Shown piece after piece: positions 14,246 through 25,995 of a stretch of 64,000 nucleotides of DNA. Positions within the stretch are counted from its first letter, which is position 1. The number at the start of each line of letters is the position of its first letter. Origin of the DNA: an uncultured Nitrospira sp. Its GTDB lineage: Bacteria > Nitrospirota > Nitrospiria > Nitrospirales > Nitrospiraceae. A program made the translations under genes and the position numbers. The notes beneath the pieces were generated by a model. That model was not told the DNA's origin. It made no database searches and saw only the letters and a program-made list of their open reading frames with translations. The stretch is from the NCBI GenBank assembly GCA_902500825.1, contig CABVRX010000016.1:20561-84560 (forward strand), given 5' to 3'.

Positions 14246-15565
14246 ATGAGAGGTGATGGGGCCAAGTTGGCTAAAAAGCTCTTACCCCAGGTAGCAATGT
14301 TGTCATTCCTCTCTCCCGGCGAAATACAAGCGCTTTCACAACGCGGCGAAATACTGTCTGTTAATGATGGCGATGTTCTTATTGCTGAGGGTGCGGTTGG
14401 AAACACCTTGTTTCTTGTGCTGCGAGGTAAAGTGGCGATCTCACGGGATGGATTTCGCCTGGCCGTAAGTGAAATGGGATCTGTAGTAGGCGAAATATCG
14501 CTCGTTGACTCGGGAAAGGCAACCGCAACAGTAACAGCTATAGGTCCAGTGATGGTGTTCAGGATATCCAGGGAGAACTTTGAAACTCTCTACTCAAATA
14601 AGAATTTTGTTCGCGCTATCCTCAAAGGTCTTGCCGCGAAAACAAGGGAGGCGATTGACCGAGACGTTGGCAACCTTCACAGAATAGAAGGACTGCGTGA
14701 TACGTTCGGGCGATATGTTTCTAAGGCAGTGTTGGATGATATATTGTCTTCTTCTGACCCGGAGTCACTTTTATCCGGTCGCTTGGCCAATGCAACAATC
14801 TTCTTTTCTGACATTCGCAATTTCACTACTTTCTCCGAGCATCTGCCTGCTGCCGACATGATCTGCCTGCTTCGAGACTATTTTGGCCGAATGGTTCCCC
14901 TGGTAACGAAGCACAACGGGTATATAAACAAGTTCATTGGTGACGCTCTTTTGGTTCTATTTAATCTTCCAGTGGCATACTCAAATTCGGCCATTGAAGC
15001 GGTACAGACTGCAATTGAAATGTCCCAATCGCTTGACGAGATGAACGCTGATAGACGCGACCGCGGAAAACCTGCGATAAGCATCGGAATTGGGATCCAT
15101 GCAGGAGAAGTAATTGCTGGCAACATTGGTAGTGTTGAGAGAATGGAATACACCGTCATCGGTGACAATGTCAATCTATGCTCACGCCTTGAGGGTTTGA
15201 CCAAGCACTATGGAGTACGGGTGCTGATCAGCGAAGATCTGCGAGAGAAGATTGGCCAACATTTCCTCATTCGCGCAATAGATTTAGTGATAGTGCAAGG
15301 TAGGCAGAAGCCCACACGGATCTATGAACTTTGTGGGACGATATCTTCAGCGAGAGATATAGAAGTATCAGTGTGTAGGCAGTATGAGGAAGTACTAAAT
15401 CTGTACTTCGCTAGACGCTGGCGTGACTGTATCAAGAAAATATCTAAGAGCAAACTGCTAGCTATCGACAATCCATCTAACGTGCTGCGTAACAGATGTG
15501 AGTTCTTTTTAAAAGAACCTCCTTCCGAAAACTGGAATTGTGCTTTTGCCATGGGTGAAAAATGA
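14246..15565 (+). CDS. cNMP-binding and class III nucleotide cyclase
   Basis: Residues ~20-135 are a cyclic-nucleotide-binding fold (LSVNDGDVLIAEGAVGNTLFLVLRG, cassette VVGEISLVDSGKATATV). It lacks a clear Arg at the cassette position, so ligand binding is doubtful. Residues ~180-370 are a class III cyclase catalytic domain: FFSDIRNFT with the first metal Asp, NKFIGDALLVLF with the Lys and second metal Asp, and MEYTVIGDNVNLCSRLE with Asn and Arg transition-state residues. Lys plus Thr/Asp suggests ATP as substrate. No membrane segment is visible, so it is likely soluble. The C-terminal ~70 residues end in PPSENWNCAFAMGEK, a motif also present at the end of the downstream CHASE2 cyclase. Confidence 0.88.
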   Translation: MRGDGAKLAKKLLPQVAMLSFLSPGEIQALSQRGEILSVNDGDVLIAEGAVGNTLFLVLRGKVAISRDGFRLAVSEMGSVVGEISLVDSGKATATVTAIGPVMVFRISRENFETLYSNKNFVRAILKGLAAKTREAIDRDVGNLHRIEGLRDTFGRYVSKAVLDDILSSSDPESLLSGRLANATIFFSDIRNFTTFSEHLPAADMICLLRDYFGRMVPLVTKHNGYINKFIGDALLVLFNLPVAYSNSAIEAVQTAIEMSQSLDEMNADRRDRGKPAISIGIGIHAGEVIAGNIGSVERMEYTVIGDNVNLCSRLEGLTKHYGVRVLISEDLREKIGQHFLIRAIDLVIVQGRQKPTRIYELCGTISSARDIEVSVCRQYEEVLNLYFARRWRDCIKKISKSKLLAIDNPSNVLRNRCEFFLKEPPSENWNCAFAMGEK

Positions 15566-15866
15566 TAGGGCACTCAAATATGGCCAAAAAGTATGGGGTC
15601 AAGAGCCTTTATGAAACGTTTTTGGTTGATGGTCACTCAACCGAATCTCCGTGGCGAGATGATGCCGTTTAACTGTGGATGCGCCGAGCGGTGGAGGCAT
15701 CGGTAGAGAACACTCTCGTTTCTACGGATGCCCCGATGCGTTTCGCACACCTTTCCTGCGAGAGGGCACCTTGTCGGTGAGATGAGGCATCGGTGTCTGT
15801 GAGGAGCCGGTGAGGCATCCTGGCGCACGCCGCTCGAGTTTTCGCAGCCTGCTAAGGTTTGAAACG
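15566..15866. other. Intergenic region between two cyclase genes
   Basis: About 300 bp, with GC-rich patches repeating short GAGGCATCGGT-like strings (15690-15800). No coding frame with support and no obvious terminator or RNA gene. An alternative start for the next gene (GTG at 15810) lies here. Confidence 0.35.
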
Positions 15867-18119
15867 ATGAGGCGAATACTCAAAGCGCTCGCATGGGGCT
15901 GTGTGGTTGGGCTCATCGGGCTCGTCTTCAGCTTCACGCACATGGCGAGAAGTTTTGAAGAGGATCTTGGCCTCGACTTTTTTTTTAAGTTGAGAGGTGT
16001 TCAACAACCGCCCACGGAAGCCGTCGTCGTCAGTATCGATAGAGACTCTGCGGAAAACCTCAAGATCCCGGACAATCCTGACAAGTGGCCTCGCTCCGTT
16101 CATGCGAGACTTATCGACACCCTTGTGCGAGCAGGTGCCAAGGCCATTACCTTCGACGTACATTTTATCGAGCCGAAGGTGACGGAAGACGATCATCTGT
16201 TCGAACAGGCGATTCGCCGCGCTGGAAATGTGGTCCTCGCTGATGCCATGAGGGCGAAAGATATTCCGACCCCATCGGCTGGACATGATGCCTCCGACAC
16301 CACCAATATCGTCAAGCTCATCAAGCCGCTTGAGTCGTTTGCGCAGGCGGCGACGGGAACTGCACCATTCGTCCTGCCCAGGATTCCTTTCAAGGTGAAT
16401 CAGTATTGGACGTTCCAGCAGGGAGCCGGTGATGCCCCGACGTTTCCGATTGTGGCATTGCAGCTGTACGGGTGGGAGGAGTTAGGAAATTTGGTTCAGT
16501 TGGTGAAACAGGTCAACCCGGCCTATGCGGAGAGGCTGCTCGGCGATGTGGAGAAGGAGCGTATCACGCGAAGTCTTGTGGGAATGATCCGTGATCTGCG
16601 AGACCTGTTTGAAGGCGATTCCTTGCTGGCTGAGCGGGTGCGCGAGGAGTTAGAGCGATCGGGTCTGCGAGCGAAGGACCAGGGTCGGTATCGCCTTCTG
16701 AAGGCTCTGATCAATATATACGGAGGAGAGGTCAGCCGGTATATCAACTTCTATGGACCGCCTGGGACGGTTCCCACGATCCATTATGACCAGGCGCTGC
16801 AGATTGGAACGGAGTCAGGGCCGGCTTTCGATGTGGAGGGCAAAGCAGTCTTTGTCGGCCTTTCGGAAATTCTGCTCGCGGAACGAAAGGACAGCTTTTA
16901 CACCGTCTTCTCGCAGGGGAACGGGGTATTCATCGGTGGGGTGGAAATTGCCGCAAGCGCCTTCCTGAACATTCTCGATGACACGACGATCGTACCGATC
17001 AGCTTGCCGGCTCATATCGGGCTGCTGTTGTGTTGGGGGATGGTCGTCGGGGCTCTCTGTCGGCTGCTCTCTATCAGCATTGCCGCCGGGGCGATGTTCG
17101 GCATGGCCGGGCTGTATCTGACTATCGCCGCACATCAATTTCAGTCCTACCAGCAATGGTATCCGGTTGTGCTTCCTCTCCTCGTTCAGTTGCCGATCGG
17201 CTTCGTCGGTGCGGTCCTCTGGAATTATGTCGAATCGGATCGTGAGCGAAAGAACATCCGCAAAGCGTTCGGGCTCTATTTGCCGAACGATGTCGTCGAT
17301 CAATTGGCGAAGGACATGGCGAATATCAAGGGCACGACACAGGTGGTCTACGGAACCTGCCTGTTCACCGATGCCGGAGACTATACTGCGCTCTCAGAGA
17401 AAATGACGCCGAAGGACCTCAGCGATTTCCTTGGCCGGTATTTCGAAGCGCTCTTTCAGCCGGTGCGCAAACATGGCGGTCTGATCGTGGATCTGAAAGG
17501 GGATTCGATCTTAGCTATTTGGAAAGGACCGCACGATGATCCGGCTCTGCGCAAAAAGGCTTGTCTGGCCGCGCTGGAGATGTCTGAGTCCGTGGCCCGG
17601 TTCAATCAATCTGTGGCGCCCTATAGTCTGCCCACACGCATCGGTCTGCATGCCGGTGAATTGACGATCGGGGCGGTCGGAGCCATGGATCACTATGAAT
17701 ATCGGCCGACCGGCGATGTCGTCAATACAGCCTCGCGTGTGGAAGGGTTCAACAAGTATGTCGGGACACAAATCGCCGTGAGCGACGAAGTGATCAAAGG
17801 TTTGGACGGACTACTGACCAGGCAACTCGGTACATTCCGGCTCAAAGGCAAAGGCACACCGCTGAGGCTTCATGAATTGGTGAACCCCTCGGAGCAGGTG
17901 AAACAGATACAGCATGAAATCTGCGCGATCTTCGCGGAGGGGTTGACGGCCTTTAGAAATCGTTCGTGGGATCAGGCTCGCGCTGCCTTCCAGCGGTGTC
18001 TCGACGTGACAGAACAAGATGGCCCCTCTCAGTTCTATTTTGCCCTCTGCGATCAGTATCTCACGACTCCCCCTTCAGAAGAACCCTGGGACGCTGTCAT
18101 CACTTTTGAAAACAAATAG
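15867..18119 (+). CDS. CHASE2-domain adenylate/guanylate cyclase
   Basis: A 750-residue membrane cyclase. An N-terminal signal-anchor (~8-27) leads to a CHASE2 extracytoplasmic sensor at ~30-380 (VVVSIDRDSAENLK, RAGAKAITFDVHFIEP). Three hydrophobic segments at ~385-465 cross back, and a class III cyclase follows at ~490-690. Catalytic features are FTDAGDYT near 498, LKGDSILAIW near 545 and EYRPTGDVVNTASRVE near 610, all consistent with nucleotide cyclisation. CHASE2 cyclases often sit beside FecR-domain proteins, and here a FecR-TPR-barrel gene follows. The ATG chosen lies 19 codons after an upstream GTG; it keeps the signal-anchor near the N-terminus, and neither start has a strong ribosome-binding site. 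Confidence 0.9.
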   Translation: MRRILKALAWGCVVGLIGLVFSFTHMARSFEEDLGLDFFFKLRGVQQPPTEAVVVSIDRDSAENLKIPDNPDKWPRSVHARLIDTLVRAGAKAITFDVHFIEPKVTEDDHLFEQAIRRAGNVVLADAMRAKDIPTPSAGHDASDTTNIVKLIKPLESFAQAATGTAPFVLPRIPFKVNQYWTFQQGAGDAPTFPIVALQLYGWEELGNLVQLVKQVNPAYAERLLGDVEKERITRSLVGMIRDLRDLFEGDSLLAERVREELERSGLRAKDQGRYRLLKALINIYGGEVSRYINFYGPPGTVPTIHYDQALQIGTESGPAFDVEGKAVFVGLSEILLAERKDSFYTVFSQGNGVFIGGVEIAASAFLNILDDTTIVPISLPAHIGLLLCWGMVVGALCRLLSISIAAGAMFGMAGLYLTIAAHQFQSYQQWYPVVLPLLVQLPIGFVGAVLWNYVESDRERKNIRKAFGLYLPNDVVDQLAKDMANIKGTTQVVYGTCLFTDAGDYTALSEKMTPKDLSDFLGRYFEALFQPVRKHGGLIVDLKGDSILAIWKGPHDDPALRKKACLAALEMSESVARFNQSVAPYSLPTRIGLHAGELTIGAVGAMDHYEYRPTGDVVNTASRVEGFNKYVGTQIAVSDEVIKGLDGLLTRQLGTFRLKGKGTPLRLHELVNPSEQVKQIQHEICAIFAEGLTAFRNRSWDQARAAFQRCLDVTEQDGPSQFYFALCDQYLTTPPSEEPWDAVITFENK

Positions 18120-18813
18120 TCTGACGCGCGAGATTAGCGGACTGTAACAAATACCGCATACTTCGTTGCACGGCCTCAGAGCTGCTCATCCAGCCTTCGT
18201 GAAAAGGGCGTCATAGTCAGCCACTTTCCTCGGGCCTGAATCGAATCGGATACAGGATCTATTTCGATACATTGGATCTGTTTCGATACATCAAGATCTT
18301 GACAACGATTGCGGAAATAATTGGTCGGAAGCTCCCGCCTGTGACTGACGTGCTCCGCTAGGCCGTTCTGTCACGCTGAAAATGAGTGCGACCAACCGTC
18401 GCGGCGCCGCATAACTGAACCTCTGAGCCTGAAACGGGTTGGTTACGTCTTCTCCATCCATCCTTTCCTTCTTGCATAGGCACATCCTTTGCGTATCGCC
18501 GTGCGGAGGTGATGATGTTGACCAGATGTAATGGTGGTAATTCAGGTTTCCTGAGTGAAGGTGGTGTTTTGACATATAGGAATACGTTTAATTCTTATAC
18601 CTTATAAAATGGCATGTGGCCGCCTCGTCGTAATGCTTGTAATTGGTCGAGTGTGATGATTAGGGTGCGCCCCTCCTTGTCATGCATGAGGACTTGGAGG
18701 ATCCGGAGAAGTAGTCGAGTCGTCAAAAAGCGGAATTGATCAGAGCTTCCCTAAGTGCACTATGGCTGATTCCAGGATGGGACAGCCGTGAAGCAACGAG
18801 AAGGGAGGTAGTG
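18120..18813. other. Long leader region before the FecR-barrel gene
   Basis: Nearly 700 bp without a credible gene. It holds a small direct repeat (see 18262-18291) and a sequence TTGACA at 18569-18574 with AT-rich sequence downstream that could be a sigma-70 -35 element, although the -10 is poor. The ribosome-binding site AAGGGAGGT (18801-18809) belongs to the following gene. A structured 5' leader or small RNA cannot be excluded. Confidence 0.35.
18262..18291 (+). repeat. Short direct repeat TTTCGATACAT
   Basis: The 11-mer TTTCGATACAT occurs at 18262-18272 and 18281-18291, 19 bp start to start, each near GGATCTG/GGATCT. A spacing close to two helical turns would suit two copies of a protein-binding site. 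Confidence 0.5.
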
Positions 18814-21800
18814 ATGGGAGGAACGGCGAACCGATGGGGGGTTTGTGCAAGTCTTATGGTTTGCTCAAGCATCCTGCTGGGTGTGTTGTCTCCTGCCCCG
18901 TCACGTGCGGCGACATGCGAGCCGCCGATCGCGAAAGCGATGGCCGTCGAGGGCAAGGTGGATGTCCGCTCCACCGACAGCACGCAGTGGCGGCCGGTCA
19001 AGCTGAACGACACCTTCTGCCCCGGCGACGTCATTCGCGTGCAGGAACGAAGCAGAGCCGATATCGCGCTCTCGAATCAGCCGATCTTACGTCTCGATCA
19101 GAACAGCACGATGACGCTCGGCGGCGTCAAGAAACAAGGCGGCTCGGTCGTCGAACTCACGAAGGGCGCCGTGCACTTCTTCAGTCGCCTCCCCAGGAAC
19201 CTCGACATCAAGACCGCCTTCGTGAACGCAGGTGTGGAAGGTACGGAAGGCGTCGTGAACGTCGGCGAGGAGAAAGCTGAAGTCACGATCTTCGAAGGGA
19301 AGGTCGTCGCGGCCAACGAATCCGGGACAGTCACCCTCACCAACGGCCAGTCGGTTGTTGCTGAAACGGGTAAACCCCTTACATATCAGACCGTCGTCAA
19401 GCCGCGCGATGCGGTGCAGTGGGCGCTGCATTACCCGCCGGTCATTGACCGGAAATCCGGTGAAGCGGGAGAAGCGCAATCGCTCACCAACCGTGCCGCA
19501 GACGCGCTGGCGGTCGGCCGGGTGGACGAAGCCAAGGCGGACCTCGACCGGGCGCTGAAAACGGATCCGCGATCTGCCGATGCACTGGCCCTCCAGTCCA
19601 TCATCGCCGTCGTGCAAAACGACAAGGAACAAGCGCTGGGCTTGGCCACCAGCGCAGTGGCGGCAAATCCGCAGTCCGCCTCCGCTAAGATCGCGCTGTC
19701 CTATGCCCAACAGGCTCATTTTGATGTCGACGGAGGGCTGAAGAGTCTCCAGGAAGCCGTCAAGGCCGAACCCAACAACGCCCTGGCCTGGTCGCGATTG
19801 GCGGAATTGCATCTGTCGCTGCAGCAACTCGATAAGGGATTAGCAGCCGCACAACAAGCCGTGGAAATAAATCCCGATGTCGAGCGGGCACACACGGTTT
19901 TAGGATTTGCCTACCTCTTGCAGGTCAAAACCAAAGAGGCGCAAGCCGAATTTCAAAAGGCGCATGAAATTGACCAAGCTGCGGCATTGCCGCAACTGGG
20001 ATTAGGTTTGGCCAAATTCCGGGAAGGCAAAGTCGAAGAAGGTCGCCGCGAGATGGAAGTCGCCGCCAGCTTGGATCCAAACAATTCGATGATCCGCAGT
20101 TATCTAGGCAAAGCGTACTTCGAAGAGAAAAAAACAGATTTGACGGAACGTGAATATCAGAACGCCAAGGAACTTGACCCCAAAGATCCAACACCGTTCT
20201 TCTATGACGCGCTACAGAAACAGCTCACCAACAGGCCGGTCGAGGCGTTAAAGGACATGGAGACGGCCATTAAGAACAATCAAAATCGCGCTGTGTATCG
20301 GTCTCAATTACAAATGGATCGAGACCTTGCGGCACGCAGTTCTGCCTTGGGTCGTGTCTACACCGATTTGGGTTTCGAGCAAGTCGCCTTGGTTGAAGGT
20401 TGGACTTCTATCACGCAGGATCCCAGCAGTTACACGGCTGCTCGTTTCCTGGCCGATACCTATGCCTCACGGGAACGTTCAGAAGTGGCGCGGGTCAGCG
20501 AATTGCTGCGATCCCAACTGTTACAACCGCAAAACATCACGCCGATCCAACCAACCCAAGCCATCAGCAATCTTTTGTTACTGGGTTCCATCGGTCCAAC
20601 CGGCACGTCGTTTAGCGAGTTCAATACCTTGATGGTCAATCGCGACCGGCTCACGTTTCTCGGCAATGGATTGTATGGTAGCAATAACACAGCGATGGGA
20701 GAAGGTGTCGTTGCCGGCATTTTCGGAAAACTCTCGGTCAGCGCCGGATTCTCCAATTTTAGGACAGATGGCTGGCGCGCGAATGCCAACCAAAAAGATG
20801 CGATTGCGAACGTGTTCATGCAGTATGAACTCACCCACAAAACGAGTATTCAGGCTGAATATCGCTATCGCAACCTACAGCTAGGTGACGTGCAGCAACG
20901 ATTCTTTAACGATAATTTCGAGCCATTTTTTAATAATTCGATAGTGAACAATGTTTTCAGGATTGGAGGACGGCATTCTTTTACACCTGACTCGACCCTG
21001 CTAGCCAACTTTAGTTACACGAAAAATGGGGATCTTGCCACATTCGCCCCTCCGAATACGCCCCCCGTTGACGTCGGACTCGGGAGTCCTGTTCCGATCT
21101 CATTCCAGCAAATCAACGGAAAAGGATTCAAGCAGGACGCGTATACCGCTGAGGTCCAACACATATTGCGCACTCAGTATCTGAATCTCGTGACCGGTGG
21201 AGGCTACAGACAACAAAACGGAAGCCCCCAATTACTTGTCAATCTTAATGCCAGCATCCTGGACCCCACGGACCCTACCCTCGCGAACCTCAATGTAGTG
21301 AACCAACCGATTCCGTTGCTTCTCCAACACCTCAACGCGTATGCGTACGGCTATTTCAAGCCGATTCGGAATCTGACCTTGATCGCGGGAGGAAGCTACG
21401 ACTATTTGGAAGGCTCACCGGCATACGTGGCTGGACCGAATTCCGACAACTCGAAGAGTCAGTTTAACCCAAAATTCGGCCTGCTCTATCAGCCTCACCC
21501 GAACACGACGATTCGGTTAGCGGCCTTCAGGACGCTTAAATCACAAACCTTAAATGAGCAGACAATCGAGCCCACCCAGGTGGCAGGCTTTAACCAGTTC
21601 TACGACGACGTCTCTATTAGCCATGGATGGCGCTACGGAGCGGCGATCAACCAAAAGTTCTCAAAGACGTTCTTTGGAGGTGTCGAAGGTTCTTACAGAA
21701 AAGTGGACCTTCCCACAACGGATGTCCTCGATGTCACAAATACCACTAACAATACTAACGAGTGGTATCAGGCGTTGGCCTATCTCAACTATGCGCCGCA

Positions 21801-22209
21801 TCCGTGGGTCGCACTCAGGGCACATTACCAATATGACCAATACGCCAACAGTTTGCCTGGTGCCGGACAATTCTCCGATGCCCAGCTATACACGAGTCGC
21901 GTGCCCTTGTCGGCTGGTTTTTTCCACCCATCTGGGTTCATTGCCAATGTGACTGTCACCTACTGGAACCAAACTGGGACGTTTGAGCCCCTGAGTCAAC
22001 CACTCGGAACACGAGTAGATGGGCACGATACGTTTTGGCTGACCGATGCCATGATCGGATACCGGATGCCGGAACGGTACGGACTGATTGTGGTCGGCGT
22101 GAAAAATCTATTTGATCAGCAGTTCAACTATTTCAACACGGACTGGAGAAATCCGATCATTCAGCCTGATCGGCTCGCATTCTTCAAGATCACCATTGCC
22201 CTTCCATGA
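18814..22209 (+). CDS. FecR-TPR-outer-membrane barrel fusion protein
   Basis: A 1131-residue protein with a cleavable signal peptide (Sec type, cleavage near SRA-AT). A FecR domain is at ~42-170 (AVEGKVDVRS, GDVIRVQERSRADIAL, EGTEGVVNVGEEKAEVTIFEGKV as separate strands). About seven tetratricopeptide repeats span ~220-500, and ~600-1131 contains many amphipathic strands typical of an outer-membrane beta-barrel, like the C-terminus of TonB-dependent receptors but without a plug domain. The C-terminal strand ends in FFKITIALP. FecR domains are usually periplasmic sensors; TPRs bind partners. The start is set by the signal peptide and the ribosome-binding site AAGGGAGGT. It is followed after 51 bp by the cysteine-rich genes. 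Confidence 0.85.
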   Translation: MGGTANRWGVCASLMVCSSILLGVLSPAPSRAATCEPPIAKAMAVEGKVDVRSTDSTQWRPVKLNDTFCPGDVIRVQERSRADIALSNQPILRLDQNSTMTLGGVKKQGGSVVELTKGAVHFFSRLPRNLDIKTAFVNAGVEGTEGVVNVGEEKAEVTIFEGKVVAANESGTVTLTNGQSVVAETGKPLTYQTVVKPRDAVQWALHYPPVIDRKSGEAGEAQSLTNRAADALAVGRVDEAKADLDRALKTDPRSADALALQSIIAVVQNDKEQALGLATSAVAANPQSASAKIALSYAQQAHFDVDGGLKSLQEAVKAEPNNALAWSRLAELHLSLQQLDKGLAAAQQAVEINPDVERAHTVLGFAYLLQVKTKEAQAEFQKAHEIDQAAALPQLGLGLAKFREGKVEEGRREMEVAASLDPNNSMIRSYLGKAYFEEKKTDLTEREYQNAKELDPKDPTPFFYDALQKQLTNRPVEALKDMETAIKNNQNRAVYRSQLQMDRDLAARSSALGRVYTDLGFEQVALVEGWTSITQDPSSYTAARFLADTYASRERSEVARVSELLRSQLLQPQNITPIQPTQAISNLLLLGSIGPTGTSFSEFNTLMVNRDRLTFLGNGLYGSNNTAMGEGVVAGIFGKLSVSAGFSNFRTDGWRANANQKDAIANVFMQYELTHKTSIQAEYRYRNLQLGDVQQRFFNDNFEPFFNNSIVNNVFRIGGRHSFTPDSTLLANFSYTKNGDLATFAPPNTPPVDVGLGSPVPISFQQINGKGFKQDAYTAEVQHILRTQYLNLVTGGGYRQQNGSPQLLVNLNASILDPTDPTLANLNVVNQPIPLLLQHLNAYAYGYFKPIRNLTLIAGGSYDYLEGSPAYVAGPNSDNSKSQFNPKFGLLYQPHPNTTIRLAAFRTLKSQTLNEQTIEPTQVAGFNQFYDDVSISHGWRYGAAINQKFSKTFFGGVEGSYRKVDLPTTDVLDVTNTTNNTNEWYQALAYLNYAPHPWVALRAHYQYDQYANSLPGAGQFSDAQLYTSRVPLSAGFFHPSGFIANVTVTYWNQTGTFEPLSQPLGTRVDGHDTFWLTDAMIGYRMPERYGLIVVGVKNLFDQQFNYFNTDWRNPIIQPDRLAFFKITIALP

Positions 22210-22260
22210 GAACAATGATCAAAAATGTGCTGATGAAAACCCAACCGACAGGAGGTGCGT

Positions 22261-22926
22261 ATGTTGATTAGATGCTTAGCCGTGATCTGTGCCATGGCGC
22301 TCACCATTCCTATCTGGGGACTCACGAGTGACGCCCTGGCACTGAACATTACGTTGAGGAAGGCGAGCCCCAATACCGTGGGCTGTGACCTGGTTGTGAC
22401 CGAGACAGGAGATATTGACACGGATACCTTGAGCGTTAGCTGCAAAGTTGGGCCGCCGTCAGAAGGCGTGCCTAATATACCCGGGCTTGCTCTGTGTCGC
22501 AATCCAGGGAGCAAGAAGAACGCAGCCCCAGGGATACAGCTGGTGGAAGTGGAATTAGTTGGATCATTTGAGGACACGTCCTCAGTTAACCAGGTGAATT
22601 GCAACGGGGAGACTGGACAGTGTGAACAAACTGTTACCGCTTCGGCCAAAGGAGCTCAATTAGCCGCGTTAAATGCTGCATGCCCAAACCCACGATGGAC
22701 CGTGTCAGATTTTGCGCCCTGTTCGACGATAATTATGGTCACAGCAACTGGTACATGTGGCGAAGGGTACGGGACGAGGACAGCCACGGCAACATTCAGC
22801 TGTGTAGAGATTAACTGCCAGGCGGTAGTGCAGTTCGATAAAAAAACTGGGAGATTGGGGGGGCCTGATTACGCATGCAATGAGGTATCTAGGACAGATT
22901 CAGGGTGTGTGTATCCTGGAGACTAA
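22261..22926 (+). CDS. Secreted twelve-cysteine protein A
   Basis: A 221-residue protein with a signal peptide (hydrophobic core ALTIPIWGL, likely cleavage after DALA) and a mature part of about 195 residues containing 12 Cys. I do not recognise the family. The 12 Cys align one for one with those of the downstream paralogue, along with ITLRKASPN, VGPP, NPGxK, NAAPGIQL and LNAACPNP. An even, conserved Cys count in an exported protein implies up to six disulfides, and a DsbA-like gene follows. Start: ATG at 22261 is 5 bases after AGGAGG; an upstream in-frame GTG overlaps that site. Confidence 0.8.
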   Translation: MLIRCLAVICAMALTIPIWGLTSDALALNITLRKASPNTVGCDLVVTETGDIDTDTLSVSCKVGPPSEGVPNIPGLALCRNPGSKKNAAPGIQLVEVELVGSFEDTSSVNQVNCNGETGQCEQTVTASAKGAQLAALNAACPNPRWTVSDFAPCSTIIMVTATGTCGEGYGTRTATATFSCVEINCQAVVQFDKKTGRLGGPDYACNEVSRTDSGCVYPGD

Positions 22927-22935
22927 GGAGGTTGA

Positions 22936-23086
22936 ATGCTGAGGCCAGTACCAACAAGTCGCCCGATCACTTTTGTGCTTTGGGGATGGGGCTCCTGCAG
23001 GCCGCAGGGCTGAGTGAGAACACGGGGACCGCTGCACAGCCAACAGCGGTCGCCACTATTGATGGTTCCATTGTCTCAGAAGCCGA
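22936..23086 (+). pseudogene. Truncated copy of the DsbA-like gene start
   Basis: This 150-bp stretch matches the first ~150 bp of the complete DsbA-like gene at 23845. Shared elements include ATGCTGAGG, GGGGATGGG, GCTGAG(T/C)GAGAAC and the stretch encoding ATIDGSIVSEA. A one-base deletion near 22978 shifts the frame, so translation from the ATG ends early at GLY-TGA. The copy is cut at the duplication junction, where the second leader begins. It cannot make a functional enzyme and is a duplication relic. Confidence 0.85.
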
Positions 23087-23140
23087 GAGCACAATGGCCA
23101 AAAATGTATTAATGCAAACCCAACCAACAGGAGGCGCGTT

Positions 23141-23782
23141 ATGTTGAGTAGATTCATGTCCGTGCTCTGTGTCATGGCGCTCACCATTCCTATCTGGGGA
23201 CTCACGAGTGACGCCCTGGCACTGAACATTACGTTGAGGAAGGCGAGCCCCAATAGCGTGTTGTGTGAGGTGCAGGGTACCGGTGCGGGAAATATTACCA
23301 AGGATCCCCTGGTCTTTAGCTGCGAAGTTGGGCCGCCGCAAGAACTCTCGACTATAACCGGGCTTGTTGTGTGTGGAAATCCCGGGAAGAAGTTGAATGC
23401 CGCGCCCGGTATACAGCTGGCGGAATTAGCTGGAACATTTGTTGAGTTTGATCCAGTTAGCCCGAGAAATTGTGACAAGAATGGAAAGTGCGTACAAAGT
23501 GTTCTTGCTGAGCCAACCGAAACTCAATTAACCTCGTTAAATGCTGCATGCCCAAACCCACAATGGGTTGCGAAAGATTTTGTGCCCTGTGCAGCGACTG
23601 TTACGGTCCAAGGGATTGGTCTGTGTAGTGATCGAATCACCGAGGGGGTGCTAGCCCAGGCATCATACTCCTGCGTGATCCCGAATTGTGAGGCTGTCCT
23701 GACATACAATCCAGCCACTCAGAAATTGGAGGGACCTGATTTCACATGCACAAAGCTATCAGAGGGACCGTCATCATGTTAG
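23141..23782 (+). CDS. Secreted twelve-cysteine protein B
   Basis: A 213-residue paralogue of protein A. The signal peptide and first ten mature residues are almost identical (the DNA too), while the remainder has diverged to roughly one third to one half identity, with all 12 Cys kept. The sharp change from near-identical to divergent sequence suggests recent gene conversion or strong constraint at the 5' end. Elements such as NPGKKLNAAPGIQL, AACPNPQW and CEAVLTYNP recur. The AGGAGG ribosome-binding site lies 5-8 bp before ATG. The DsbA-like gene starts 62 bp downstream. Confidence 0.8.
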   Translation: MLSRFMSVLCVMALTIPIWGLTSDALALNITLRKASPNSVLCEVQGTGAGNITKDPLVFSCEVGPPQELSTITGLVVCGNPGKKLNAAPGIQLAELAGTFVEFDPVSPRNCDKNGKCVQSVLAEPTETQLTSLNAACPNPQWVAKDFVPCAATVTVQGIGLCSDRITEGVLAQASYSCVIPNCEAVLTYNPATQKLEGPDFTCTKLSEGPSSC

Positions 23783-23844
23783 GAACACTACAAAATGGAG
23801 CATTAAAGAGTGGGCACCAGGCTTGTAGAGGAAGAGAAGATTGA

Positions 23845-24906
23845 ATGCTGAGGTACGTACAAAAAAGTTGCCGGTTCACTTTCTTGATTTTGGGGATGGG
23901 TTTGTTGCCGGCCGCAGGACTGAGCGAGAACAGGGGGACAGCCATACAGCCAACACCTGTCGCCACTATTGATGGTTCCATTGTCTCAGAAGCTGATCTC
24001 GCTCAGACGGTCGCGGGCCAACTCCAACAGTTAAGACAGCAGGAATATGAGCTGAAGAGTAAATCGCTGGACCAGTTGATTGCCAGGCGGTTACTCGAAG
24101 TGGAGGCCGCGAAGCAGGGTATCTCGGTTGATCAACTGACCGATCGCGAAGTCAAGGCAAAGGTCGGTGAACCAACCGATGCGGAGGTGGAAGCGTATTA
24201 TCTCGGCCAAAGGGATCGTCTTCAGCGGCCGCTATCTGAAATTCGATCACAGCTTCGGGAGGCTTTACGCCAGTCGCGAATTCAAGAGGGCATGCACCAG
24301 TATGGTGCTCGATTGAAAGCTGCATCAACGATTGTGGTGTGGCTCAATCCGCCTCGCGTTGAACTCAGTGGACATTCCAGCCGTATTCGGGGCAATTCGG
24401 ATGCGCCGGTCGCAATCGTGGAATTCTCGGATTTTCACTGCCCATTCTGTAAACGGGTGCAGCCTTCTCTGAACGAAGTGCTGTCGCGCTACGATGGAAA
24501 AGTTAAACACGTCTTCCGCGATTTCCCGTTGGATAACCTCCATCCGCAAGCCAGAGCGGCGGCCGAGGCCGCCAATTGCTCGGGAGATCAGGGTAAATTC
24601 TGGGAGTACCACGATCTCCTCTTTGCACAGGCTCCGAAAGCCTCGCTCGAAGATCTCAAAGGCTATGCCAGGACCGTGGGCTTGAATACGGAGAAGTTCG
24701 ACAACTGTGTCTTTCAAGGCACGCATCATGATGCGGTGCAACGTGATATCGATGAGGCGACCAGGGTAGGGATGACTGGGACACCGGGTTTCTTCATCAA
24801 TGGACGATTTCTCAACGGTGCACAGCCATTAGAGAAGTTTGTGCAGATCATCGACGAGGAACTGGCGTTCACACAGAAAGGGCACCGTCAGCGCATCGCT
24901 GAATGA
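23845..24906 (+). CDS. DsbA-family oxidoreductase with SurA-like N-terminal region
   Basis: A 353-residue exported protein with a signal peptide (LILGMGLLPAAGLSE). Residues ~35-160 resemble the N-terminal helical region of SurA/PpiD chaperones (ATIDGSIVSEADLAQ, LDQLIARRLLEVEAAKQGI). Residues ~170-345 are a thioredoxin-like DsbA domain with active site CPFC near 199-202 in FSDFHCPFCKR, and the cis-Pro loop GMTGTPGFFING near 310. CPFC is close to E. coli DsbA CPHC. The enzyme is expected to oxidise or isomerise disulfides in exported proteins. Its position directly after a twelve-cysteine protein suggests a dedicated substrate. It is the complete copy of the duplicated pair. Confidence 0.88.
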   Translation: MLRYVQKSCRFTFLILGMGLLPAAGLSENRGTAIQPTPVATIDGSIVSEADLAQTVAGQLQQLRQQEYELKSKSLDQLIARRLLEVEAAKQGISVDQLTDREVKAKVGEPTDAEVEAYYLGQRDRLQRPLSEIRSQLREALRQSRIQEGMHQYGARLKAASTIVVWLNPPRVELSGHSSRIRGNSDAPVAIVEFSDFHCPFCKRVQPSLNEVLSRYDGKVKHVFRDFPLDNLHPQARAAAEAANCSGDQGKFWEYHDLLFAQAPKASLEDLKGYARTVGLNTEKFDNCVFQGTHHDAVQRDIDEATRVGMTGTPGFFINGRFLNGAQPLEKFVQIIDEELAFTQKGHRQRIAE

Positions 24907-25206
24907 AGTGCTCTCCACCCGCATCGAATCTGAATGAACCGCTGGAAGAACAGGCCAGCATGAAGTCGATCAGAAGTGGCAGTGCGCCGGCCTGACGCGC
25001 ACTACCATGTCGCTCATGAATCATGAGTCAAATGAACAGCCCGCCCAAAAGAATGCAAGCCAAGGTATGAAGACAGGGGGGAGTCCAACATGGTATAATT
25101 TTGCATACCGTGAGAGGCATGCTCTATTTGATTGGCTGTCAGATATTAGCTGGCAAAAGTGTTCCTGCCGGCGGCCAACCGCATCTCTAAAATCCGAAGT
25201 CTGGAC
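24907..25206. other. Intergenic region before the phosphodiesterase
   Basis: About 300 bp. An extended -10 element TGGTATAAT is present at 25091-25099. No small gene or RNA structure is convincing here. Confidence 0.4.
25091..25099 (+). promoter_or_regulatory. Candidate extended -10 promoter
   Basis: TGGTATAAT matches an extended -10 box (TG-N-TATAAT) with a perfect TATAAT hexamer. The -35 region (AGACAG) is poor, as extended -10 promoters allow. It would start the phosphodiesterase transcript about 100 nt before the ATG. Confidence 0.45.
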
Positions 25207-25995
25207 ATGCAGATACGAGTGTTGGGTTGCCACGGGGCGGATTGCCTCGTGAATACAACAGACCGGTCGGTTTGCCAAGAGAGTTGCGGATTCCTCATTG
25301 ACAACTCCGTGCTTCTGGACGGTGGCACAATCGGCACGCGACTCACCTTGTCAGAGCAGTGTCGTATCCGATTTGTGCTCCTCAGCCATCTTCATTTCGA
25401 TCATATCAAGGGTCTACCATTATTGGTTGACAATCTCGCTGAATGGTTCGTTGAACCAGTGACTGTTGCGGCAACGGAGCCGGTCCTGCAGGGTTTGAGG
25501 GACCATGTGTTTAATGACAAGGTCTATCCAAATTTTTTCCAGCTGCCGAGTCAGGAAAATCCGATCCTGCAAGCACACGTGCTTCATCCTGGCAAATCGG
25601 TTGTGCTCGGACATCTTGAGGTCATTCCCGTTTCGGTCAACCACACCGTCCCCACCGTGGGATATGTGGTGAAGGATGACGAAGCTGCCTTGCTCTATAG
25701 CGGTGATACCTATCAGACTGAGGAAATCTGGAGCCTGGGTCAGACAACGCCCGAACTCAAGGCCGCTTTTATTGAATCATCCTTTCCTGACGAACTGGGG
25801 AAGTTGGCCCAAAAATCCAAACACCTGACTCCTTCGCTGTTCCTCAAGGAGTTTCAAAAACTTAGGCGTCCGAACCTGCCTGTCTACGCGTATCACATGA
25901 AGCCTCCTTACCAGGCCCAGATCAAGGAGGAAATCAGTCGGCTAGGCATTGAGCGGGTGGCGTTTCTCGAAGAAGGTCAGATCATTAAGTTGTAA
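25207..25995 (+). CDS. Class II 3',5'-cyclic-nucleotide phosphodiesterase-like metallo-beta-lactamase fold protein
   Basis: A 262-residue metallo-beta-lactamase-fold hydrolase. The metal motif is LSHLHFDHIKGLP, matching the HxHxDH set, with further ligands in NHTVPTVGY and YSGDTY and a final His in YAYHMKPP. The sequence fits the bacterial class II cyclic-nucleotide phosphodiesterase group better than tRNase Z or glyoxalase II, for example in LGCHGAD, LPLLVDNLAE and the SVNHTVPTVGYV pattern. It would hydrolyse cAMP or cGMP. Two cyclases lie upstream, consistent with signal removal. The start ATG at 25207 removes 16 non-conserved codons. Confidence 0.75.
   Translation: MQIRVLGCHGADCLVNTTDRSVCQESCGFLIDNSVLLDGGTIGTRLTLSEQCRIRFVLLSHLHFDHIKGLPLLVDNLAEWFVEPVTVAATEPVLQGLRDHVFNDKVYPNFFQLPSQENPILQAHVLHPGKSVVLGHLEVIPVSVNHTVPTVGYVVKDDEAALLYSGDTYQTEEIWSLGQTTPELKAAFIESSFPDELGKLAQKSKHLTPSLFLKEFQKLRRPNLPVYAYHMKPPYQAQIKEEISRLGIERVAFLEEGQIIKL

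What the first reader, a model, noticed from the sequence alone, without database searches (positions are those of the whole stretch)
18814..24906. Candidate system: FecR-TPR-barrel protein, twelve-cysteine secreted proteins and DsbA-like enzyme
The genes run in one direction with short gaps (51, 214 and 62 bp, the second containing the truncated DsbA copy). Both small exported proteins keep all 12 Cys while much of the rest diverges, and the next gene encodes a SurA-like plus DsbA-like enzyme with CPFC. This suggests dedicated folding of six-disulfide products that are either exported by, or act on, the barrel protein.
Basis: partly seen in the sequence, partly recalled or inferred. Interest (0 to 1): 0.72.

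Follow-up and report, generated by a model that had tools for sequence, protein, structure and literature searches.

The report
Cyclase receptor with secreted cysteine-rich partner
In Nitrospira bacteria, genes for a predicted outer-membrane receptor, a predicted cyclic-nucleotide-making enzyme and two cysteine-rich, likely secreted proteins lie side by side; the receptor and enzyme genes recur together across many bacterial phyla, usually with a small gene of one kind or another in the same slot, whose product is likely the receptor's dedicated partner.

Summary
In detail: gene order, gaps (51, 214, 62 bp), 12 conserved mature cysteines, a truncated dsbA copy, and a SurA-N plus DsbA enzyme with CPFC. 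The interpretation needs re-centring. The fixed core is not DsbA plus Cys proteins but a CHASE2 cyclase gene (15810-18119) beside the FecR-TPR-barrel gene: 42 of 44 well-flanked loci carry both. The barrel is predicted as a 22-strand TonB-receptor type with no plug. By profile comparison its nearest characterised relative is a rhizobial FecR-TPR-barrel protein encoded beside a CHASE2 cyclase, which I take for NsrA beside CyaK; NsrA is an outer-membrane receptor acting with such cyclases (PMC7529298, passages). The 12-Cys genes fill a slot just behind the barrel gene; in other lineages that slot holds a different family, small proteins with a two-cysteine tail. Slot type changes once on the barrel tree, phylum labels 17 times. 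A DsbA gene was seen only beside third genes with 12 or more cysteines (3 loci, plus a remnant). My reading: a trans-envelope receptor-cyclase with a dedicated secreted partner, likely ligand or co-receptor. Export cargo or pathway output are not excluded. No function was tested.

The parts
14246..15565 (+). cyclic-nucleotide-binding domain plus class III cyclase (accessory; present in 2 of 5 Nitrospira loci)
   Evidence: Pfam cNMP_binding and Guanylate_cyc; also in G405, not in the held DNA of G210, G404, G088
15810..18119 (+). CHASE2 sensor plus class III nucleotide cyclase (core)
   Evidence: Pfam CHASE2 1.3e-25, Guanylate_cyc 3.2e-16; CHASE2 near the barrel gene in 42 of 44 well-flanked loci
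18814..22209 (+). FecR - TPR - outer-membrane barrel protein, 1131 aa (core receptor)
   Evidence: Pfam; AF2 model mean pLDDT 69.8, 22 long strands by my count from residue 613; Foldseek best matches FpvA, FptA and other TonB-dependent receptors, E 4.5e-15
19027..19305 (+). FecR domain of the receptor
   Evidence: PF04773, 2.3e-12, residues 98-190 of the frame from 18736
20650..22203 (+). predicted 22-strand barrel, no plug domain before it
   Evidence: strand list; no plug family among the Pfam hits
22208..22260 (+). leader, first copy of the duplicated unit
   Evidence: repeat D6, 83%
22261..22926 (+). secreted-type 12-Cys protein, copy a
   Evidence: signal-peptide-like N-terminus (by eye) with Ala27 invariant in 17 of 17
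22926..23086 (+). truncated copy of the dsbA 5' end
   Evidence: repeats D5 (77%) and D3 (86%) against 23835-23996
23087..23139 (+). leader, second copy of the duplicated unit
   Evidence: repeat D6
23141..23782 (+). secreted-type 12-Cys protein, copy b
23845..24906 (+). SurA-N plus DsbA-like thiol oxidoreductase, CPFC (accessory)
   Evidence: PF13462 4.3e-34, PF13624 1.2e-9; 70% identical orthologue only in G405 among 79 genus genomes
25159..25995 (+). metallo-beta-lactamase-fold, class-II cyclic-nucleotide-phosphodiesterase-like protein (start probably 25207)
   Evidence: PF12706 3e-17, PF02112 1.5e-8; relatives in the four other Nitrospira loci and in L067, L083

Best explanation
The genes at 15810-25995 likely form one trans-envelope signalling unit related to NsrA/CyaK of rhizobia, in which the predicted plugless outer-membrane barrel protein (18814-22209) would report through its FecR and TPR parts to the neighbouring predicted CHASE2 cyclase, and the two 12-cysteine proteins, predicted to be secreted, are likely its dedicated outer partner. 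Shown here: the gene linkage, the domain make-up, the conserved cysteines, the strongly uneven conservation, and the match between slot-gene type and receptor lineage. Predicted: the barrel model, secretion, cyclase activity. Inferred: (1) the 12-Cys protein crosses to the periplasm or surface and binds the barrel as ligand or co-receptor; (2) binding changes the FecR-CHASE2 contact and so cyclic-nucleotide synthesis; (3) the SurA-DsbA enzyme helps to form up to six disulfides in the partner; (4) the metallo-beta-lactamase-fold gene product ends the signal.
For: CHASE2 lies in the held DNA of 42 of 44 loci with at least 4 kb on both sides; of 63 loci with CHASE2 in all, 50 have it upstream on the same strand. 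In 21 Nitrospirota genomes, 21 of 22 long FecR frames have a CHASE2 gene within 6 kb, and 28 of all 44 CHASE2 genes have a FecR gene within 6 kb, against 0.59 expected under uniform scatter. Profile comparison with three rhizobial FecR-TPR-barrel proteins encoded beside a CHASE2 cyclase, one of them on a Sinorhizobium meliloti pSymB: probability 99.9, E 5e-34. In print, NsrA is an outer-membrane receptor, barrel at residues 600-1200, required with CyaK or CyaD1/D2 for response to plant signals, one of them of protein nature (PMC7529298 abstract and passages); these cyclases have CHASE2 domains (PMC13001267 passages). Mean pairwise identity in the five Nitrospira loci: cyclase 95, FecR 90, TPR 85, CHASE2 85, barrel 56, Cys protein 34%. 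Slot type (37 small-tail versus 14 Cys-rich) changes once on the barrel tree, shuffled mean 12.4 and minimum 8 in 500; phylum labels change 17 times.
Against: No binding, secretion or cyclase activity was tested. In S. meliloti the FecR gene smc02177 and the small periplasmic-protein gene smc02178 near the CHASE2 cyclase cyaD1 are cAMP-activated and were reported as not needed for signal perception, with only a weak effect of the smc02178 mutation (PMC5498481 abstract and passages); if that layout is analogous, the small protein is an output. The three rhizobial nsrA-like loci that I read show no slot gene between barrel and cyclase. The FecR+TPR tree splits the slot types as cleanly as the barrel tree (1 change), so the pairing cannot be pinned to the barrel, and inheritance as one cassette would give it too. 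Many small-tail slot proteins show no signal peptide by eye. The cyclase lacks the usual substrate lysine (K in 1 of 62), so its product is uncertain. In the rhizobial proteins the barrel part alone matches only weakly (domain E 9e-6 to 0.3). L072 and L108 have long flanks and no CHASE2 hit.
Confidence: 0.45

Rival explanations
1. The barrel is a secretion pore and the slot protein its cargo: the TPR part would gather the cargo in the periplasm and the plugless barrel would let it out, as in Slam (type XI) secretion; FecR-CHASE2 would report the load.
For: TPR plus barrel with an adjacent secreted-type product; no plug domain found; slot type tracks receptor lineage; the slot protein varies most.
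Against: The barrel is predicted as 22-strand TonB-receptor type, not a known export pore; no Slam family among the Pfam hits; the nearest relative in print is a receptor.
Confidence: 0.2
2. The slot protein is an output of the pathway: its gene is switched on by the cyclic nucleotide and it acts elsewhere on the envelope or outside, without binding the barrel.
For: S. meliloti smc02178, a small periplasmic-protein gene near a CHASE2 cyclase and a FecR gene, is a cAMP/Clr target and was reported as not needed for signal perception (PMC5498481 abstract and passages).
Against: The slot gene starts mostly within about 160 bp of the barrel stop, as if co-expressed; no excess of sites like the E. 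coli CRP site was found in the window (20 against 28 expected), though the Nitrospira site is unknown.
Confidence: 0.2
3. One reading: mainly a disulfide-folding system in which DsbA, the Cys-rich proteins and the barrel form the unit, and the cyclase is incidental.
For: DsbA next to third genes of 12 or more Cys in the window, L046 and L103, and a DsbA remnant in G210.
Against: DsbA in held DNA of only 3 of 12 loci with 10 or more Cys and 0 of 50 with fewer, whereas CHASE2 is in 42 of 44 well-flanked loci.
Confidence: 0.1
4. Neighbourhood without function: variable secreted genes happen to sit behind the barrel.
For: Slot genes are not one family: 48 of 72 link, the rest fall in small groups or alone.
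Against: Two-cysteine C-terminal pattern in 44 of 72 slots (pattern chosen after looking) and 9 of 16 new slots (pattern fixed), against 7 of 496 other gene ends; one change of slot type on the tree.
Confidence: 0.03

Closest known systems
NsrA with CHASE2 cyclases CyaK/CyaD1/CyaD2 of Sinorhizobium meliloti
   Same: Long FecR-TPR protein with a C-terminal outer-membrane barrel, gene next to a CHASE2 cyclase; profile match over most of the length. In print: outer-membrane receptor for plant signals, one of protein nature (PMC7529298, passages).
   Different: About 20% identity in the profile alignment; no slot gene seen between barrel and cyclase in the three rhizobial loci. That the pSymB gene is nsrA is inferred from replicon, size and neighbour; its locus tag was not in the passages that I read.
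Campylobacterota cluster: CHASE2 cyclase, phosphodiesterase, FecR outer-membrane protein, TPR protein (PMC9239204)
   Same: Same four functions, including a phosphodiesterase; its authors propose one pathway (section read).
   Different: FecR protein and TPR protein are listed as separate genes there; no small secreted gene is mentioned in that section.
BiofilmReg operon: LysM-FecR protein, CHASE2 histidine kinase, DUF4136 protein (PMC5192318)
   Same: FecR protein encoded beside a CHASE2 sensor, with an uncharacterised small gene in the operon (passages).
   Different: Histidine kinase in place of cyclase; LysM in place of TPR-barrel.
FecA-FecR-FecI and FpvA-type cell-surface signalling
   Same: TonB-receptor-type barrel and a FecR domain.
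   Different: FecR fused to the barrel through TPRs, no plug domain found, no sigma factor among the seven genes scanned; cyclase instead.
Slam / type XI secretion (recalled)
   Same: TPR plus barrel with an adjacent secreted product.
   Different: Barrel size and family differ; no Slam family hit.

Membership tests
NsrA/CHASE2-cyclase receptor pairs | FecR and TPR parts followed by a C-terminal outer-membrane barrel | tested here: met
   (barrel by prediction)
NsrA/CHASE2-cyclase receptor pairs | CHASE2 cyclase gene adjacent | tested here: met
NsrA/CHASE2-cyclase receptor pairs | sequence relationship over the whole length | tested here: met
   hhalign 989 columns, E 5e-34; likely driven by FecR-TPR, as the barrel part alone is weak
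NsrA/CHASE2-cyclase receptor pairs | cyclase response requires the barrel protein | not testable with these tools
   needs a bench test
TonB-dependent transporters | 22-strand barrel | tested here: met
   (prediction; strands counted by me)
TonB-dependent transporters | N-terminal plug domain | tested here: not met
   no plug family in Pfam hits up to E 0.1; about 43 residues between the TPR helix ending at 569 and strand 1 at 613
Fec-type sigma signalling | ECF sigma factor encoded alongside | tested here: not met
   seven genes 14246-25995, none a sigma factor
Slam / type XI secretion | Slam barrel family | tested here: not met
   no such Pfam hit; 22 strands predicted; family features recalled
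DsbA-like thiol oxidoreductases | thioredoxin fold with CXXC and cis-Pro loop | tested here: met
   PF13462 and PF01323; CPFC and TGTP read in the sequence
Class III nucleotide cyclases | two metal Asp, transition-state Asn and Arg | tested here: met
   61, 61, 62 and 61 of 62 CHASE2 proteins; residue roles recalled
Adenylate cyclases of class III | substrate-site Lys | tested here: not met
   Asp in the window; Lys in 1 of 62; residue roles recalled
12-Cys family as any known protein family | match to a curated family or solved structure | tested here: inconclusive

The most novel reading that the evidence does not exclude
A widespread class of bacterial surface receptors carries its own protein ligand: a plugless TonB-type barrel fused to FecR and TPR parts, wired to a CHASE2 cyclase, with a co-encoded, exchangeable secreted protein (a Cys-rich beta-sandwich protein in one receptor lineage, a small protein with a two-cysteine aromatic tail in others) that docks on the barrel and lets the cell sense itself, its kin or its surface state through a cyclic nucleotide.
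Probability: 0.3. Interest if true: 0.8.

Novelty: new variant of a known kind. Interest (0 to 1): 0.6.

Why it matters
CHASE2 is a sensor domain whose input was unknown (stated in a 2016 passage of PMC5192318). The finding that 28 of 44 CHASE2 genes in 21 genomes lie by a FecR gene, that FecR is built into a predicted outer-membrane barrel protein, and that a small gene of its own usually sits behind the barrel gene makes that question directly testable: which part touches CHASE2, and is the slot protein the ligand? It would extend a receptor type known from legume symbionts to nitrifiers, sulfate reducers and methanotrophs.

Tried and rejected
A first scan of genome contigs with the two 12-Cys proteins found no relative; its patterns fell in the signal peptide. 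The phylum search with the two-row profile found only the window's genome among 395; G404 and G405 were not in that draw, and G088, which was, matched only with the 17-row profile. Fold search of the 12-Cys model gave nothing below E 0.001 and only generic beta-sandwich or Ig-like partners; families not listed are not excluded. Rfam found only a tRNA. A scan for sites like the E. coli CRP site found fewer than chance. PHROGs gave nothing of use. Considered and rejected: that the Cys-rich slot proteins are multihaem cytochromes (no CxxCH in any of the 44 downstream ORFs listed); that DsbA defines the system; that the slot genes are all one family (48 of 72 linked, the 12-Cys family apart).

Limits of counts: the 80 loci are the best 80 of 463. 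L080 and L090 gave no barrel ORF and were dropped. Nine of the 81 loci had no usable downstream stretch or no barrel ORF, so slots were counted on 72; 10 of these 72 gave no ORF by the caller. Of 22 loci in the second set, 6 repeated the first set and were left out. At least two of the seven control matches (L052, L056) look like true slot genes beside another gene. The clustering set left out L050 and L149 as poor ORF calls. The Cys-rich label was set by me by hand (15 loci; L103 fell out because its barrel is incomplete; L058, L061 and L072 have 6 to 9 Cys); 24 loci were 'other' and not counted. Phylum labels come from NCBI ranks; several 'Myxococcota' rows are records titled Deltaproteobacteria.

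Not-in-print statements rest, in a library that lacks most subscription papers; the NsrA paper itself is not held.
Full report
Observation. The reported layout is real. Reading frames, gaps and coordinates agree with the finding. The 214-bp gap holds a truncated copy of the dsbA 5' end followed by a copy of the leader of the first 12-Cys gene, so the pair likely arose with a tandem duplication of a unit made of leader, 12-Cys gene and dsbA start. The two proteins share 51% identity; all 12 mature cysteines are kept while only 75 of 173 other mature positions are. A database search gave 17 members, 2 of them the window's own; 16 of 17 keep all 12 Cys, and Ala27, at the likely cleavage site, is invariant. 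The one organism named by a source is Nitrospira.

Co-occurrence in the genus. Among 79 genomes of the genus the full-length barrel protein (64% identity or more) is in 5 and the 12-Cys family in 4; every 12-Cys hit lies directly behind the barrel gene, and the fifth barrel genome (G210) has a 13-Cys ORF in that place. In two further cases a 12-Cys protein and a barrel protein have the same longest-contig length (P0004/P0009 with P0021; P0010 with P0022), which suggests linkage but was not seen. Contexts of the other members are unknown.

What is constant. All five Nitrospira loci have a CHASE2-cyclase gene before the barrel gene and a metallo-beta-lactamase-fold phosphodiesterase-like gene after it; DsbA is in two, a DsbA C-terminal remnant is in G210, and a small protein that looks like an outer-membrane protein takes the place in G404 and G088. 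Beyond the genus the barrel family is large (1706 proteins at E up to 0.001 for the barrel part, 7997 candidates scored). Of 80 loci with flanks plus the window, 79 gave a barrel ORF; of 44 with at least 4 kb on both sides, 42 hold CHASE2 (L072 and L108 do not); 63 of 79 overall, many being cut short. Clustering of neighbour ORFs of 90 aa or more found no third gene family in more than 7 loci. In 21 Nitrospirota genomes, 21 of 22 long FecR frames have CHASE2 within 6 kb, and 28 of 44 CHASE2 genes have FecR within 6 kb, against 0.59 expected.

The slot gene. Directly behind the barrel gene there is usually a gene with a good ribosome-binding site: 62 of 72 slots with at least 400 bp held, against 222 of 496 other gene ends treated the same way. 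A pattern chosen after looking (C-x(5-18)-C in the last 34 residues) is met by 44 of the 72, against 7 of the 496. With caller and pattern unchanged, 9 of 16 new Nitrospirota slots meet it. By sequence, 48 of 72 slot proteins from both sets link into one family; 16 aligned members share two invariant Cys in a tail like NPxCxW....GxWYxxC. The Cys-rich ones fall apart from it: the window's, L046, L047 and L049 match the 12-Cys profile clearly, L048 and L072 (a Methylococcaceae MAG) only weakly (E 0.005 and 0.008). Of 12 different slot proteins from other loci, 10 scanned in each of Pfam and NCBIfam, none matched a family beyond chance (best E 0.15).

Pairing. On a tree of the barrel domain (75 rows) all 14 Cys-rich loci fall in one 25-row group with SH-aLRT support 100 that holds none of the 37 small-tail loci; the 14 carry four NCBI phylum labels (Nitrospirota, Thermodesulfobacteriota, Myxococcota, Pseudomonadota). 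Two-state changes: 1, shuffled mean 12.4 and minimum 8 in 500; leaving out four of the five Nitrospira rows it is still 1; phylum labels need 17. A tree of the FecR-TPR part gives 1 too, so the pairing is with the receptor as a whole. Linked inheritance of a cassette would also give this.

Conservation. In the five Nitrospira loci mean identity falls from cyclase (95%) and FecR (90%) through TPR and CHASE2 (85%) to barrel (56%) and Cys protein (34%), while the metallo-beta-lactamase-fold gene is at 80% and a flanking 266-aa gene at 89%. The inner, signalling side is held fixed; the predicted outer side and the secreted-type protein vary.

Structures. The barrel model (35-row alignment, mean pLDDT 69.8, barrel blocks mostly 70-94) shows 22 long strands by my count after the TPRs and no plug. 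Foldseek's best matches are TonB-dependent receptors, FpvA and FptA among the first, FecA in the list.

Nearest known. On a Sinorhizobium meliloti pSymB, and on an Ensifer and a Rhizobium plasmid, a FecR-TPR protein of about 1,200 residues with a weakly matching barrel end precedes a CHASE2 cyclase; profile comparison with the barrel family gives E 5e-34 over 989 columns. From replicon, length and neighbour I take the pSymB gene for nsrA beside cyaK. Papers (abstracts and passages) describe NsrA as an outer-membrane receptor that works with CHASE2 cyclases, one of its plant signals being of protein nature (PMC7529298; PMC13001267). A section of PMC9239204 describes a Campylobacterota cluster of CHASE2 cyclase, phosphodiesterase, FecR outer-membrane protein and TPR protein and proposes one pathway. 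PMC5498481 (abstract and passages) describes smc02177 (FecR) and smc02178 (small periplasmic protein) near cyaD1 and clr, both needed for infection control but reported as not needed for signal perception. The last point speaks against the ligand reading and for the output rival.

DsbA. In the DNA held it is beside third genes of 12 or more Cys only: window, L046, L103 (Rokubacteria MAG, 18 Cys); 3 of 12 loci with 10 or more Cys, 0 of 50 with fewer, p 0.006, but window and L046 are near kin, so about two independent cases. In L051 (10 Cys) an ORF like the SurA-N start of this enzyme is cut by the contig end 3.3 kb downstream. In the genus, 74 of 79 genomes have some DsbA-like match at E up to 1e-20, but a close orthologue only in G405. 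So the enzyme looks like a dedicated paralogue recruited in some lineages.

Cyclase caution. Metal and transition-state residues are kept in 61-62 of 62, but the substrate lysine of adenylate cyclases is Asp here and Lys in only 1 of 62. I therefore write 'cyclic nucleotide', not cAMP.

Verdict. The best reading is a receptor-cyclase unit distantly related to NsrA/CyaK with a dedicated secreted partner; ligand or co-receptor is my choice over cargo and output, at modest confidence.

Noticed in passing
L067, L070, L073, L079, L096, L101 and others, just behind the barrel gene: A family of small slot proteins (about 60-140 aa), many without an evident signal peptide, ending in a two-cysteine aromatic tail; the members scanned have no curated family. 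It may resemble a peptide precursor; export route unknown.
   Followed up: partly
CHASE2 cyclases of 62 loci: The substrate lysine of class III adenylate cyclases is replaced in 61 of 62, mostly by Asp, Asn or Glu, while catalytic residues are kept; the product may not be cAMP.
   Followed up: partly
L153 4206-4745 and L152 4167-4775: A gene annotated as Pycsar system effector family lies divergently beside the FecR-barrel/CHASE2 cyclase pair in Rhizobium sp. BG4, and a similar-sized ORF lies in the same place on S. meliloti pSymB.
   Followed up: no
21 Nitrospirota genomes: Seven CHASE2 genes lie within 6 kb of shorter FecR genes without a long frame, so the FecR-CHASE2 link is wider than the barrel type.
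   Followed up: partly
L037 11645-13408: G210 holds a DsbA C-terminal remnant and what looks like a decayed copy of the metallo-beta-lactamase-fold gene between the Cys gene and the intact copy.
   Followed up: partly
L038 7922-8623, L039 7614-8303: In G404 and G088 a small protein that by eye looks like a small outer-membrane beta-barrel takes the place of DsbA.
   Followed up: no
L050, L093 behind the barrel gene: The slot protein ends in a PEP-CTERM-like tail (by eye).
   Followed up: no
window 22261-23782 and L036 13269-14780: Two 12-Cys paralogue types occur in both genomes but in swapped order; in the window their 5' ends are more alike than the rest, as after a recombination.
   Followed up: no
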